NCBI GenBank assembly: GCA_016786585.1
Contig: JAEUUI010000014.1
Span: 62,001-126,000, forward strand
DNA from: Cyclobacteriaceae bacterium
GTDB taxonomy: Bacteria; Bacteroidota; Bacteroidia; Cytophagales; Cyclobacteriaceae
DNA length: 64,000 nucleotides
Direction: 5' to 3'
Each line of letters opens with the position of its first letter. Positions within the stretch are counted from its first letter, which is position 1. The notes under the pieces were generated by a model. The model was not told where the DNA came from. It worked only from the letters and a program-made list of their open reading frames with translations, and did no database searches. Below, piece by piece: positions 13,278-16,719 of the stretch. The translations under genes and the position numbers were made by a program.

Positions 13278-13836
13278 ATCCGGAAACACCGCCCGACACG
13301 ATAAACTTCATAGCCACCGGACCTGACACGTTCAGTGGCTTGATGTTTTCTTTTGGTACAACAAAATGATCACCGGCAAAGGCATATGATTGCGGAAAGT
13401 ACACCACCACCATGTCGTTCAAACCCAGGGTTGATAAATCGTTTTGAGTAATGAAGCCAATCCGATGAAGTTGATTCTCTTTGTTGATACGAACCAACAC
13501 CGGCTTGTCGAATTTCTTCTTATCTCCCACAAACGCATCCAGTAAATCTTTAACAGATGAATAGATCAGTTTTACAAACGGGATATGACTCACCACACCT
13601 TCGAACCACGTAACCAGCGTTTGAAAAAGGAAGTTTGAAGTAAAGTATCCGAAAAGCGTGATGGCAACAATTACGATCGCAAAACCCAGCCCCGGATACG
13701 GAAGCGGAATGAGCCCGTCAAGCCAGCTGAATGAGATAAAGATTACATAAATCGTTGCAACCAGCGGGACGATGAATAATGTGCCGCTAAAAAAGTAGCG
13801 GACAACTTTTCTGAAACTGGTTTCTATCCGTGCCAT
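13264..13836 (-). CDS. DUF502 family membrane protein
   Basis: The 190-residue protein has two N-terminal membrane segments (about 13-36 and 48-70), then FEGVVSHIPFVKLIYSSVKDLLDAF, the DUF502 signature, and a soluble beta-rich C-terminal domain with VVYFPQSYAFAGDHFVVP. The family is widespread and functionally uncharacterised. Its start overlaps the stop of cmk by one base (TAATG), so it is translationally coupled to cmk. Confidence 0.92.
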   Translation of the reverse strand: MARIETSFRKVVRYFFSGTLFIVPLVATIYVIFISFSWLDGLIPLPYPGLGFAIVIVAITLFGYFTSNFLFQTLVTWFEGVVSHIPFVKLIYSSVKDLLDAFVGDKKKFDKPVLVRINKENQLHRIGFITQNDLSTLGLNDMVVVYFPQSYAFAGDHFVVPKENIKPLNVSGPVAMKFIVSGGVSGFKES

Positions 13837-14528
13837 TAAGAAGGTCGCAATGCTTTACTCAACGCCTGCCGCACTACTTCATCCACTTGTTCTTCGACCG
13901 TGATATGCGTAGTATCAATCACGATTGCATCAGGAGCTTGTCGCAACGGACTCTCCTTTCGGGTGGTATCGATCTTGTCGCGCTGAGCAATGTTTTCAAT
14001 TACTTCGTCAAGATCTACCAGACGGTCGTTCTCAAGAAGTTCCTTTTGTCTGCGGATGGCCCTGACAACCATATCGGCTGTCATGAAAAACTTAAGGTCT
14101 GCGTTTGGAAACACCACCGTACCGATGTCACGGCCATCCATAACGATGGCTTTCTCCTTCCCCATTCTGCGTTGTTGTTCGACCATCGCTACGCGTACAT
14201 CTTTCACGGCACTCACCGGGCTAACTTTTTCGGAGATACGCATTTTACGAATCTCCTTTTCAACGTTCAGGTTATTCAGATAGGTCTCTGATATGCCCTT
14301 TGAGTTCACCTTGAACGAGATATGAATCTGCGAAAGCGCCTTGATGATATCCTTCGGATTGGACAGTGAAATGTGGTTGTCCAGGAAATACAACGTAACC
14401 GCCCGGTACATGGCACCTGAATCGATGTAACGGTATCCCAAAATACGGGCGACTTCCTTGGCCGTAGTACTTTTACCACAAGCTGAGTAGCCATCAATTG
14501 CAATCACCATTTTCCGGAACGTACTCAT
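13836..14528 (-). CDS. cmk: (d)CMP kinase
   Basis: This enzyme phosphorylates CMP and dCMP to the diphosphates with ATP, in the cytoplasm. ATG 14528 is chosen (230 residues); only a TTG lies upstream. The P-loop is GYSACGKST (about residues 12-20), followed by YIDSGAMYRA, which is diagnostic of cytidylate kinase. Later come VMDGRDIGTVVFP and the lid segment with RDKIDTTRKESPL. It sits between a tiny lipoprotein gene and the DUF502 gene, with one-base stop/start overlaps on both sides, forming a tight operon. Confidence 0.96.
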   Translation of the reverse strand: MSTFRKMVIAIDGYSACGKSTTAKEVARILGYRYIDSGAMYRAVTLYFLDNHISLSNPKDIIKALSQIHISFKVNSKGISETYLNNLNVEKEIRKMRISEKVSPVSAVKDVRVAMVEQQRRMGKEKAIVMDGRDIGTVVFPNADLKFFMTADMVVRAIRRQKELLENDRLVDLDEVIENIAQRDKIDTTRKESPLRQAPDAIVIDTTHITVEEQVDEVVRQALSKALRPS

Positions 14529-14650
14529 TAGCAATCTTTTGTTGGACAAGGGATTGGCTTACCGGGTTTAAGCCTTTTATGAGGCTTGTTTTGCGATGCG
14601 CAGCCAAAAAACACTGCCAGGGTTAATACAAAAACAATGGTTTTTCTCAC
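14528..14650 (-). CDS. Small lipoprotein of 40 residues, coupled to cmk
   Basis: A GTG at 14650 opens a 40-residue frame: basic start (MRKT), hydrophobic core, lipobox VFFGC (Cys17), then a basic, proline-rich tail with KPGKPIPCPTKDC at the end. The stop TAA shares its last base with the cmk ATG. The lipobox, sensible length and coupling argue it is a real envelope peptide. The two C-terminal cysteines (CPTKDC) could form a disulfide or bind metal. No ATG start is available, and the function is unknown. A -7-like TAACTTTC lies a little upstream on the minus strand. Confidence 0.6.
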   Translation of the reverse strand: MRKTIVFVLTLAVFFGCASQNKPHKRLKPGKPIPCPTKDC

Positions 14651-14827
14651 AGCAGAGCAATTTTTCGAACTGAAAGTTATAACGCTGACAGGGAATTGAA
14701 AACTGTTTCTGCAGAATAACTTTTTAATGCAAATTCCAACGGTTGAAACGACCGAAACGCTTGTTTCCTGACTATTCTCATAACCCGACCCGCAGATTTT
14801 CGTTATCTTGTACCATATCCCATTTTT

Positions 14828-15100
14828 ATGGAAAACACCGAACAAGGCAAAGCTGAAAAGGCATTTAAAAATTTTGGCAAACGGCTCGATGACTTTATGG
14901 TTGAAGTAAACGAGGCGAGCGATCACTTGCAAAAGGAATTCAAGTCACGTTTTGAAGAGCTGAAAGAATCTGCCGAGGAACTCAAAAAACAGGCAAAAGA
15001 CAAAGAGCGGTGGAAAGAAGTAGAAGTAAGTCTTAAAAAAGCAGGCGAGCAGCTCAACAACGCCTTCAAGGCAGCCTTCAAGAAAAAGGAAGGTCAGTAA
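14828..15100 (+). CDS. Small charged helical protein
   Basis: This 90-residue protein without signal peptide is rich in Lys, Glu and Ala and is almost certainly all-helical, with heptad-like spacing of Leu, Phe and Ala from about residue 12 to 85 (FEELKESAEELKKQAKD). It is not assigned to a family. It resembles small cytoplasmic amphipathic-helix proteins rather than an enzyme. It converges on the MATE gene across a strong hairpin. A -7-like TATCTTG lies about 18 bp upstream of the ATG. Confidence 0.75.
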   Translation: MENTEQGKAEKAFKNFGKRLDDFMVEVNEASDHLQKEFKSRFEELKESAEELKKQAKDKERWKEVEVSLKKAGEQLNNAFKAAFKKKEGQ

Positions 15101-15162: not shown

Positions 15163-16557
15163 TTAAATTTTAACGTTCTTCCATTTTCCTCTCCGGAAAA
15201 TGACAATGGCTGCAATCGCCATGGCCGATTCAGCTGAAACAATCGCGATATACGCTCCGGTGGTTTTAAAATCCAATTCAATTGCCATCAGGTACGCAAA
15301 TGGAATTTGAAACAACCAGAACCCGAACACGTTCAGTATGGTTGGTGTAAGCGTATCGCCCGCTCCATTGAACGACTGTATGATCACCATGCCATACGCG
15401 TAAAACACATAGCCAAGACTTACAATCTGCAAGCATTGCATTCCGCTTTGCAGCACCGCTGGATCATCGGTGTAAATTCCGACAATCGGACCGGCAAGTG
15501 TATAAAATACAATTGTGACGATCCCCAGAAAGATCATGTTCAGAAACGCAGAACGATACACCGATTTCTCAGCCCGCTCTGGCAATCCTGCACCGAGGTT
15601 TTGACCGACCAGTGTGGCGGCTGCATTGGCCATTCCCCACGCAGGCATAATGGCAAACACAATCACGCGGATACCGATCGTATAACCCGCAAGTGCAGCG
15701 CTACCGAACGTTGAGATAATACGTACCAGGAATATCCAGCTTGCTGAGGCAATAATAAACTGACCGGTTCCTCCGGCAGAAACTTTGATCAAACGCCAGA
15801 TAATGTCCCAGCGAACTGCCAGGTTGCTGACATTTAACCGGATAAGACCCTTGCCTTTCGTGAGGTGATAAACTTGGTAAATAACACCAGTACCACGACC
15901 AATCATTGTAGCCACGGCAGCACCTTGTACACCCATTTTTAACCCCAGGATGAATACAGGAGCGAGCGCAATGTTCAAACTGTTTGAAATAATGAGTGAA
16001 CGCATGGCAATGGCTGCATTTCCTGCTCCACGGAAGATTCCATTAATGATGAAGAGCATCACAATCGTAATATTCCCACAGAGCATCAGGCGTGTATAGC
16101 CGGAATTATTAGCAATCAGCGAATCACTGGCTCCCATCAAATGAAGAATGTCGGTCGCGAAGAAAATTCCAACGACACTAATCATCAGGGAGAGACCAAT
16201 ACCAATATAAATTGCCTGCGCAGCCGCAACCTGTGCAGCAGGCACATCTTTTTCGCCCACCCTTCGGGCAACCATAGCGGTTGCGCCCATGCTGATGCCC
16301 ATTGCAAGTGAGTAGATAATTGTAAGTACCGATTCGGTCAACCCAATGGTTGCAATGGCATCGTTGTCACCAAGCCGGCTAACGAAAAATATGTCAACAA
16401 CCGCGAACAGCGATTCCATCAACATTTCCAACACCATGGGAACGCTGAGCAGAAAGATTGCACGGTCGATGCTGCCCTCGGTGAAGTTCTCTTCTCCACC
16501 CCGGATAGCCTGTTTAAGTAAACGGAAAAACGAAGTCAGTTTTGTAGAAAATGACAT
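15163..16557 (-). CDS. MATE family multidrug/solute exporter
   Basis: The 464-residue integral membrane protein has twelve predicted helices in two related halves. MATE landmarks include SIDRAIFLLSVPMVLEMLME at the start, VDIFFVSRLGDNDAIATIGL, and the repeat-type ATLVGQNLGAGLPERAEKS in the second half. Such proteins export cationic or amphiphilic compounds in exchange for Na+ or H+. The substrate is unknown. The gene has its own likely promoter (16712-16719) and a roughly 150-nt leader with a highly structured element (16595-16676), which suggests control by an RNA structure. Confidence 0.95.
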   Translation of the reverse strand: MSFSTKLTSFFRLLKQAIRGGEENFTEGSIDRAIFLLSVPMVLEMLMESLFAVVDIFFVSRLGDNDAIATIGLTESVLTIIYSLAMGISMGATAMVARRVGEKDVPAAQVAAAQAIYIGIGLSLMISVVGIFFATDILHLMGASDSLIANNSGYTRLMLCGNITIVMLFIINGIFRGAGNAAIAMRSLIISNSLNIALAPVFILGLKMGVQGAAVATMIGRGTGVIYQVYHLTKGKGLIRLNVSNLAVRWDIIWRLIKVSAGGTGQFIIASASWIFLVRIISTFGSAALAGYTIGIRVIVFAIMPAWGMANAAATLVGQNLGAGLPERAEKSVYRSAFLNMIFLGIVTIVFYTLAGPIVGIYTDDPAVLQSGMQCLQIVSLGYVFYAYGMVIIQSFNGAGDTLTPTILNVFGFWLFQIPFAYLMAIELDFKTTGAYIAIVSAESAMAIAAIVIFRRGKWKNVKI

Positions 16558-16594
16558 ACAAACCAGTTAATAAGTTATAAATGATTGAAAATAT

Positions 16595-16676
16595 CCCGCA
16601 TGCTGCGGGAGTTGGAAAGTAAAATTGGCGGAGCGCCAAGTCGTCCAGTCCGTAGACAGGACTCAGAATACCAACT
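16595..16676 (-). promoter_or_regulatory. Candidate structured RNA leader of the MATE gene
   Basis: Read on the minus strand: an outer 6-bp helix (AGTTGG 16676-16671 with CCAACT 16615-16610) encloses two hairpins, AGTCC/GGACT (16663-16647) and TTGGCG/CGCCAA (16639-16625). Directly after it comes a hairpin CCCGCA-gca-TGCGGG (16609-16595), followed by ATATTTT. This is a three-way junction plus one helix, 38 nt before the MATE ATG. It may be a riboswitch-like leader. Alternatives are a dispersed palindromic repeat, or use of the TTGGCG hairpin with its TTTT tail as terminator of the upstream operon. Confidence 0.5.
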
Positions 16677-16711
16677 TCATGGTTCGTTGTCGATTAATGA
16701 ATTTGCTTACG

Positions 16712-16719
16712 CAAAGATG
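16712..16719 (-). promoter_or_regulatory. Candidate -7 element of the MATE gene
   Basis: On the minus strand CATCTTTG matches TAnnTTTG at 7 of 8 positions. It lies between the upstream gene's stop (16759) and the structured element, so the element would be transcribed as part of the MATE leader. No -33 TTG is seen. Confidence 0.35.

What the first reader, a model, noticed from the sequence alone, without database searches (positions are those of the whole stretch)
16595..16719. Possible structured RNA leader (three-way junction) upstream of a MATE exporter gene
Four mutually compatible helices lie in 82 nt: an outer 6-bp stem, two internal hairpins (5 and 6 bp) and a directly adjacent 6-bp hairpin followed by a U-rich run, ending 38 nt before the MATE ATG. 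A -7-like element lies upstream at 16712-16719 and would include the element in the leader. MATE exporters are known riboswitch targets, but I do not match this to a named class. It could be a new metabolite- or drug-sensing leader. Alternatively it is a dispersed palindromic repeat, or the TTGGCG hairpin with its TTTT tail terminates the upstream operon.
Basis: partly seen in the sequence, partly recalled or inferred. Interest (0 to 1): 0.75.

Follow-up and report, generated by a model that had tools for sequence, protein, structure and literature searches.

The report
Leader-peptide switch before a MATE exporter
The RNA ahead of this drug-exporter gene contains a tiny five-codon gene whose start pairs with the start of the exporter gene, so a ribosome stuck on the tiny gene would probably switch the exporter on; a similar arrangement is found in many related bacteria.

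Summary
The centre of the element was missed: a five-codon upstream ORF, M-K-L-V-F-stop (16680-16663), inside the proposed outer stem. Of 60 held-out MATE leaders of the family, 31 have a five-codon M...F-stop ORF, against 0.5 in shuffles; 84 of 92 leaders were assigned some uORF. A hairpin follows the stop and covaries in nine selected relatives. The uORF start region pairs with the MATE start region: 0 of 20,000 partner swaps do as well, while flanking regions show little or nothing. In the window this helix (16691-16680 with 16565-16553) takes in two bases of the MATE AUG. Most likely it is a leader-peptide attenuator: a ribosome arrested on the uORF, probably by a ribosome-targeting drug, frees the MATE start. 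The peptide resembles the macrolide-arrest peptide MsrDL (MYLIFM); arrest and inducer are untested. A metabolite riboswitch, a dispersed repeat or only the upstream operon's terminator are unlikely. No Rfam family matches. A new variant of a known kind.

The parts
16712..16719 (-). -7-like promoter element CATCTTTG
   Evidence: Read directly; CATCTTTGCGTAAGC is identical in the three close leaders, and similar ATCTTT..CGTAAGC stretches lie at the same place in several relatives (listing). That Bacteroidota promoters look like TAnnTTTG is recalled.
16663..16680 (-). uORF (leader peptide) M-K-L-V-F-stop
   Evidence: Read directly. 31 of 60 held-out family leaders have M...F-stop, shuffle mean 0.51, maximum 3 in 200 shuffles; 84 of 92 leaders assigned a uORF.
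16680..16691 (-). 5' strand of the long-range closing helix (GACA ACGAACCA), ending at the A of the uORF ATG
   Evidence: Folds; family-wide swapped-partner tests.
16553..16565 (-). 3' strand of the closing helix (TGGTTTGT-A-TGTC), taking in T and G of the MATE ATG
   Evidence: pair probability 0.33-1.0 depending on segment ends; mean paired probability of the AUG 0.57-0.66.
16643..16662 (-). H1, hairpin immediately after the uORF stop (UACG loop)
   Evidence: P 0.81-0.85. In nine relatives chosen for a registrable 6-bp/5-nt version: 54 of 54 cells paired, 4 of 6 pairs with changes on both sides.
16625..16639 (-). H2, TTGGCG-CTC-CGCCAA with TTTT tail, terminator-like
   Evidence: P 0.98-0.99. 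One close relative (L002) loses its inner pair.
16594..16610 (-). H3, TCCCGCA-GCA-TGCGGGA, terminator-like
   Evidence: P 1.0; at least CCCGC/GCGGG kept in the two close relatives while the loop varies.
16610..16615 (-).
   Evidence: P 0.13-0.40 once the MATE start is included in the fold.
16566..16572 (-). TATTAAC, alternative partner of uORF bases 16675-16669 (GTTGGTA)
   Evidence: MFE structure; P 0.11-0.32.
15163..16557 (-). MATE family efflux transporter, the regulated gene
   Evidence: TIGR00797 253.8 bits (cut-off 147.4); PF01554.

Best explanation
The region is a leader-peptide (ribosome-mediated) attenuator of the MATE gene. Shown by sequence: a 5-codon uORF conserved as a peptide across many relatives, a hairpin directly after its stop, and a long-range helix between the uORF start region and the MATE start region. 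Inferred: without an inducer, ribosomes pass the uORF quickly, the closing helix re-forms and hides the MATE AUG, and initiation is blocked, in a phylum that lacks Shine-Dalgarno pairing and depends on an unstructured start region. When a ribosome is arrested on the uORF, most likely at its stop codon with Phe in the P site and a tunnel- or PTC-binding antibiotic bound, it covers the 5' strand of the helix and the foot of H1, and the MATE start is freed. H2 and H3 may add transcription attenuation in this species. The inducer class (macrolide-like) is a guess from the resemblance to MsrDL.
For: Held-out leaders: 31 of 60 have a five-codon M...F-stop ORF at -70 to -200, shuffles mean 0.51, maximum 3; leaving out 3 leaders that cluster with the discovery set and counting only assigned uORFs, 28 of 57. 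Peptide-level constraint: Leu at position 3 in 26 of the 31 held-out hits (peptide list), and among 48 five-codon clusters Leu3 is written CTG 15, TTG 7, CTT 6, CTC 5 (position 5 is biased because F was in the assignment rule). Pairing of the uORF region with the MATE start: 68 clusters, own -13.3 against swapped -10.8 kcal/mol, 0 of 20,000 permutations as good, 54 of 68 better than expected. It repeats with only automatically assigned uORFs (35 clusters, 0 of 20,000). Controls: region upstream of the uORF z -1.5 (1,316 of 20,000) with 67 clusters and -2.0 (535) with the 35; region after the stop z +1.4 (44 clusters) and +1.6 (28). In ten selected leaders 15 cells change on both sides, shuffles 6.2, 0 of 500. 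Blocking the uORF as a ribosome would raises computed accessibility of the MATE start from 0.51 to 0.58 on average (27 of 68 leaders gain over 0.1, 4 lose over 0.1; same-size control blocks gain 0.007; Wilcoxon p 0.004 on 53 leaders). The leader stays with MATE while upstream genes change. Literature: MsrDL MYLIFM arrests at its stop with erythromycin; Ala at L3 or I4 abolishes induction, F5 clashes with release factors (PMC10314930: outline, passages, section 8). E. coli toiL pairs with the topAI ribosome-binding site in the same way (PMC12121999: outline with abstract, section 12). Structure at the start region reduces expression fivefold in Prevotella (PMC3155529: abstract).
Against: No expression, ribosome-profiling or induction data. 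The pairing is not evident in every leader: 14 of 68 clusters are no better than expected, and in the first test of 38 leaders many of the more distant ones did no better than swapped partners. The upstream control is itself slightly negative (z -1.5 and -2.0), so relatedness or composition adds something. The hand-chosen covariation sets are not exceptional on every measure: pairs with a change on both sides are matched by 46 and 21 of 500 shuffles, further pair types by 60 and 58. The accessibility gain is modest; in the window the -20..+6 mean rises from 0.40 to 0.52, or AUG-unpaired from 0.43 to 0.56 and the -15..+6 mean from 0.41 to 0.45 with other segment ends. The closing helix falls to P 0.33 with one choice of ends. 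In one clade (e.g. L200, L213) part of the pairing lies some 35 nt or more upstream of the MATE ATG, where structure need not block initiation (a -9 kcal/mol hairpin at -21 did not inhibit in Prevotella; PMC3155529 section 12). Register differs from MsrDL: Phe5 directly precedes the stop here, Met6 there. The window uORF ends in TGA, not TAA. 8 of 92 leaders have no assigned uORF.
Confidence: 0.7

Rival explanations
1. Same uORF sensor, but the switch is mainly transcription attenuation: H2 and/or H3 act as intrinsic terminators, and a ribosome arrested on the uORF changes the fold so that RNA polymerase reads through (as for msrD).
For: H2 and H3 both score as terminator-like in the window (2 found, shuffles 0.7). 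19 of 68 leaders have a terminator-like hairpin between uORF stop and MATE ATG against 3.9 in shuffles (maximum 8); L035 shows one clearly by eye.
Against: 49 of 68 leaders have none by that scan. In the window, blocking the uORF does not lower H2 or H3 probability (both 1.0), and I found no strong antiterminator pairing by eye. The uORF-MATE-start pairing is broader.
Confidence: 0.2
2. The uORF serves constitutive coupling: its translation keeps the MATE start open or feeds re-initiation, with no drug or metabolite sensing.
For: The pairing and the uORF alone would give this; no inducer is known here.
Against: Coupling does not need a conserved peptide, yet Leu3 and a mostly hydrophobic residue 4 (V, L, I, M, F or A in 39 of 48; Thr in 7) recur with varied codons. 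The uORF ATG lies a median 117.5 nt before the MATE ATG (quartiles 109 and 129.5), in any frame (24, 23, 21 of 68), unlike close termination-reinitiation pairs.
Confidence: 0.1
3. One reading: a metabolite- or drug-binding riboswitch aptamer formed by the three-way junction.
For: Structured leader before a MATE gene; low folding energy.
Against: No Rfam match in the window or in 20 relatives' loci; the best sub-threshold hit on this strand over the element is isrK, 14.5 bits against a gathering score of 50. Junction and loops differ among relatives, while a uORF recurs. The outer stem is one alternative among several.
Confidence: 0.04
4. H2/H3 are the terminator of the upstream GDYXXLXY/DUF2157 operon, or dispersed palindromes, unrelated to MATE.
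For: Terminator-like, on the same strand about 120 nt after the upstream gene's stop.
Against: Single copy as a whole and one or two places per palindrome. The upstream genes were found only in the two closest of the 80 loci, but uORF leaders stay with MATE.
Confidence: 0.03

Closest known systems
MsrDL (MYLIFM) leader of the ABC-F gene msrD, streptococci (PMC10314930)
   Same: Hydrophobic mini-peptide of the form M-x-L-[I/V]-F close to a stop codon; UAA prevalent (51 of 68 clusters here); a hairpin within reach of the arrested ribosome.
   Different: Here it stands before a MATE exporter in Bacteroidota; Phe5 is the last residue (no Met6); the main conserved pairing joins the uORF and the main start rather than forming a terminator; arrest and drug untested.
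toiL uORF of E. coli topAI (PMC12121999)
   Same: Repressive helix between the uORF and the start region of the main gene, opened by a ribosome stalled in the uORF.
   Different: Toxin-antitoxin operon of E. coli with Rho-dependent termination; the peptides were not compared here.
cplR, vmlR and vmlR2 uORFs (MR[I/M], MIN, MK[L/Q]; PMC10201436, passages seen)
   Same: Very short uORFs before resistance genes; short ORFs such as MIL, MIF, MVI, MRI stand before more distant MATE homologues (20 of 37 leaders have a 3-5-codon ORF against 8.3 in shuffles).
   Different: Gram-positive ABC-F genes; for cplR a terminator hairpin that also hides the Shine-Dalgarno element.
tetQ translational attenuator of Bacteroides (cited in PMC5418344, passages seen; the original paper is not held)
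   Same: Bacteroidota gene for resistance to a ribosome-targeting drug, controlled at translation by its leader.
   Different: Ribosome-protection gene, tetracycline; its leader sequence was not compared here.

Membership tests
Leader-peptide (ribosome-mediated) attenuator of a resistance-type gene | Short uORF in the leader, conserved across orthologues | tested here: met
   31 of 60 held-out leaders M...F-stop, shuffles 0.51; 84 of 92 assigned. Translation itself not shown.
Leader-peptide (ribosome-mediated) attenuator of a resistance-type gene | RNA structure linking uORF occupancy to expression of the main gene | tested here: met
   Swapped-partner tests and controls; compensatory pairs in a selected subset. 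Structural link only; its effect on expression is not shown.
Leader-peptide (ribosome-mediated) attenuator of a resistance-type gene | Inducer-dependent ribosome arrest on the uORF and induction of the main gene | not testable with these tools
   Needs toeprinting and reporter assays.
MsrDL family | Peptide M-x-L-I-F-M with essential L3 and I4, arrest at UAA with Met6 in the P site | tested here: not met
   Here mostly M-x-L-[V/L/T/I/M]-F then stop, no Met6; window stop is UGA.
MsrDL family | Downstream gene is an ABC-F | tested here: not met
   MATE transporter.
Intrinsic-terminator transcription attenuator | Terminator hairpin with U-tract between leader and gene | tested here: inconclusive
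   Two in the window; 19 of 68 relatives against 3.9 expected.
Known riboswitch or Rfam leader families | Match to the covariance model at gathering score | tested here: not met
   0 matches in the window and in 20 loci of relatives.

The most novel reading that the evidence does not exclude
A family-wide antibiotic sensor in Bacteroidota: a five-codon MsrDL-like arrest peptide (M-x-L-V-F-stop) senses an exit-tunnel or PTC-binding antibiotic at termination and, without any Shine-Dalgarno sequence, opens a direct uORF-to-start-codon helix to switch on a MATE exporter. This would be a second origin of the M-x-L-[I/V]-F arrest motif and a leader-peptide control of a MATE pump.
Probability: 0.42. 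Interest if true: 0.78.

Novelty: new variant of a known kind. Interest (0 to 1): 0.62.

Why it matters
It would make the drug response of a widespread chromosomal MATE exporter directly testable: the peptide predicts a class of inducers, and the inducer would suggest what the pump exports. It also gives a clean case of translational attenuation in a phylum that starts translation without Shine-Dalgarno pairing. In one search, 247 of 390 genomes of the family carry a homologue of this MATE at E<=1e-135.

Tried and rejected
Dispersed repeat: rejected. Known RNA family: none. Widespread MKLVF uORF in front of other genes: the degenerate pattern has 38 matches in 31 of 118 genomes, fewer than the 57 I count for the reversed-pattern control. 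Of the 30 matches that came with a locus, 23 overlap a longer ORF, 7 do not; the window's own precedes MATE, and 4 others (one of them overlapping) have an ORF start 71-260 nt downstream that I did not pursue. An antiterminator pairing from the freed 3' arm of H1 was looked for by eye and not found. The first upstream listing read minus-strand loci the wrong way round and these were redone; one search failed on a file name.

Rows dropped or limited. Of 176 leaders, 26 with an identical last 150 nt were merged. In the swap test 8 of 92 leaders had no uORF assigned (L158, L162, L168, L181, L214, L215, L221, L222). uORFs other than M...F were picked by eye, so the automatic subset was tested apart. 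Clusters come from a simple 8-mer rule. The leaders outside the family set and L039, L042, L045-L050 were not in the swap test; L039 has MILTF-stop at -259. MATE starts may be wrong for some leaders; L148/L073 has no ATG start and was given a doubtful one. Two of the 31 held-out hits (MPMIF) may be the shorter MIF. The 37 distant leaders were picked by hand (non-Bacteroidota titles mostly left out; L106 and L118 are titled Cyclobacteriaceae). Alignments A2 and A3 are hand-chosen rows that could be put in register, so their covariation illustrates the pairing; the unselected evidence is the swap test. Literature: nine searches; none of the titles or abstract starts listed reports a uORF controlling a MATE gene in Bacteroidota. 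The lists were capped (e.g. 15 of 49, 12 of 281) and the library is open-licence only.

Full report
Observation. The stretch folds better than its shuffles (z -2.91, 1 of 200). The element is not repeated: one match at E<=0.001 in the held genome, one place for the TCCCGCA palindrome and two for the TTGGCG palindrome. No Rfam family matches the window at its gathering score.

What was missed. In the two closest relatives (L002 and L003, the same contigs as L065 and L064; MATE 96% identical) the stretch from the -7 element through the uORF is identical.

Conservation of the uORF. MATE homologues were collected from named genomes (the 80 best of 448 loci) and from the family (247 of 390 genomes at E<=1e-135; 21 new loci returned, and 60 further stretches fetched). 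The rule 'five codons, M...F, stop' was set on the first set and applied to 60 held-out leaders: 31 have it, against a mean of 0.51 and a maximum of 3 in 200 dinucleotide shuffles; 26 of the 50 clusters in that set are hit. Three of the 60 cluster with discovery leaders; without them, and counting only the uORFs assigned, 28 of 57 have it. The peptides are MKLVF 9, MKLTF 4, MKLMF 3, MILVF 3, MFLIF 2, MILLF 2, MPMIF 2, and one each of MFLVF, MIFVF, MKLRF, MKSLF, MILMF, MKFVF; Leu is third in 26 of 31. Many of the remaining 29 have variants (MKLFI, MILVY, MKVIL, MKSFIxFxxA and so on). Of 92 leaders considered for pairing, 84 were assigned a uORF and 8 were not. Among 48 five-codon clusters Leu3 (33 of 48) is written with four codons, which speaks for selection on the peptide. 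The Phe5 count is biased by the rule. UAA is the stop in 51 of 68 clusters. In 37 more distant MATE leaders picked by hand the signal is weaker: 20 have a 3-5-codon ORF against 8.3 in shuffles (maximum 17), among them MIL, MIF, MVI and MRI.

Structure after the uORF. A hairpin (H1) follows the stop directly. In nine relatives with a 6-bp stem and 5-nt loop, all 54 cells pair, four of six pairs have changes on both sides (46 of 500 shuffles reach four), and the covariation score is 0.73 against 0.25 in shuffles (0 of 500). These rows were chosen because they could be put in register. The region from the uORF stop to 15 nt before MATE is more stable than shuffles on average (mean z -1.8; 48 of 68 below -1). 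In the window H2 and H3 follow; both look like terminators.

Pairing of the uORF with the MATE start. The full-leader fold closes with GACA-ACGAACCA (16691-16680) on TGGTTTGT-A-TGTC (16565-16553), which takes in two bases of the MATE AUG. Its probability is 0.85-1.0 in six of seven choices of ends and 0.33 in the seventh. Across 68 leader clusters, the duplex energy of a leader's uORF region with its own MATE start region averages -13.3 kcal/mol against -10.8 for swapped partners; 0 of 20,000 permutations reach it, and 54 of 68 are better than expected from row and column means. With automatically assigned uORFs only (35 clusters) it is again 0 of 20,000 (z -5.4). Control regions do not behave this way: -70..-31 gives z -1.5 (67 clusters, 1,316 of 20,000; in the 35-cluster subset -2.0, 535 of 20,000), and the stretch after the stop gives z +1.4 (44 clusters) and +1.6 (28 clusters). 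Relatedness can add to such a signal; the clustering and these controls argue that it is not the whole of it. An earlier test on 38 leaders, including three near-identical ones and distant ones, also gave 0 of 20,000, but many distant leaders did no better than swapped partners. Clear double changes include L165 GAAGCTGAC/GTCAGTTTC against L166 GAAACTGAT/ATCAGTTTC, L187 GAAGTTG/CAACTTC against L197 GAAGTC/GACTTC, and L035 CCTATGAAG/CTTCATAGG against L038 CCTATGAT/ATCATAGG. In ten selected rows 15 cells change on both sides against 6.2 in shuffles (0 of 500; pairs with such a change 6, reached by 21 of 500).

Does a ribosome on the uORF free the MATE start? Forcing the uORF region to be unpaired raises mean accessibility of -20..+6 from 0.51 to 0.58 (27 of 68 leaders gain over 0.1, 4 lose over 0.1); equal blocks elsewhere gain 0.007 (53 leaders; Wilcoxon p 0.004). 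The effect is modest in the window: 0.40 to 0.52, or AUG unpaired 0.43 to 0.56 with the segment ends that favour the helix least.

Ownership. In tblastn against the 80 loci, the upstream genes of the window were found only in L064 and L065, while the genes beyond MATE (a small ORF and cytidylate kinase) were found in 24 loci. The leader therefore stays with MATE. The MKLVF pattern itself is not enriched genome-wide: 38 matches against 57 for the reversed pattern in 118 genomes, and of the 30 places with a locus 23 overlap longer ORFs and only the window's own precedes MATE.

Mechanism. Shown: conserved uORF, conserved hairpin, conserved pairing of the uORF with the start region. Inferred: translation of the uORF, arrest by an inducer, release of the MATE start. 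The closest peptide is MsrDL, MYLIFM, which arrests at its stop with erythromycin or azithromycin; Ala at L3 or I4 abolishes induction and F5 clashes with release factors (PMC10314930: outline, passages and section 8). Here L3 and a mostly hydrophobic residue 4 recur, but Phe5 is last. The closest architecture is toiL/topAI (PMC12121999: outline and section 12). In Prevotella, start structure of -5.2 kcal/mol cut expression fivefold (PMC3155529 abstract), while a -9 kcal/mol hairpin at -21 did not (section 12). This fits a role for the helix at the AUG and argues against H2 and H3 blocking translation by themselves. Transcription attenuation may add to it: 19 of 68 leaders have a terminator-like hairpin, against 3.9 expected.

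Verdict. In nine searches of an open-licence library none of the listed titles or abstract starts reports such control for a MATE gene in Bacteroidota; the lists were capped. Which drug, if any, it senses is unknown.

Noticed in passing
window 13836-15100: The neighbourhood beyond MATE (a 90-aa ORF on the plus strand at 14828-15100 without a Pfam match, then cytidylate kinase at 13836-14549, named by recall) was found in 24 of the 80 loci, so the small ORF may be a real conserved gene.
   Followed up: partly
L160 and L161, upstream of MATE: The uORF runs on through the H1 hairpin as a 16-codon ORF (MNSLAFSMTDMVRPLL, MNTLAFSMTDMVRPLL), as if the early stop had been lost; the H1 bases of L160 still pair (GACGGA/TCCGTC).
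   Followed up: no
L169, L182, L083, L172: A sub-clade has longer uORFs (12-23 codons) beginning MKLV(I/N)L(A/T)G, with GC-rich hairpin sequence inside the coding part.
   Followed up: no
L104, L110, L121, L122: Four MATE leaders (two titled Chitinophagaceae, two Bacteroidetes) share a different mini-ORF, MNS-stop or MNN-stop, followed by a conserved GCAG(A/G)GCTTAG stretch; possibly a sister leader type.
   Followed up: no
L038 and L039: These MATE leaders hold about 100 nt or more of extra sequence with palindromes; the uORF MILTF sits at -232 in L038/L079 and -259 in L039. In L038 its pairing with the MATE start is still among the strongest.
   Followed up: partly
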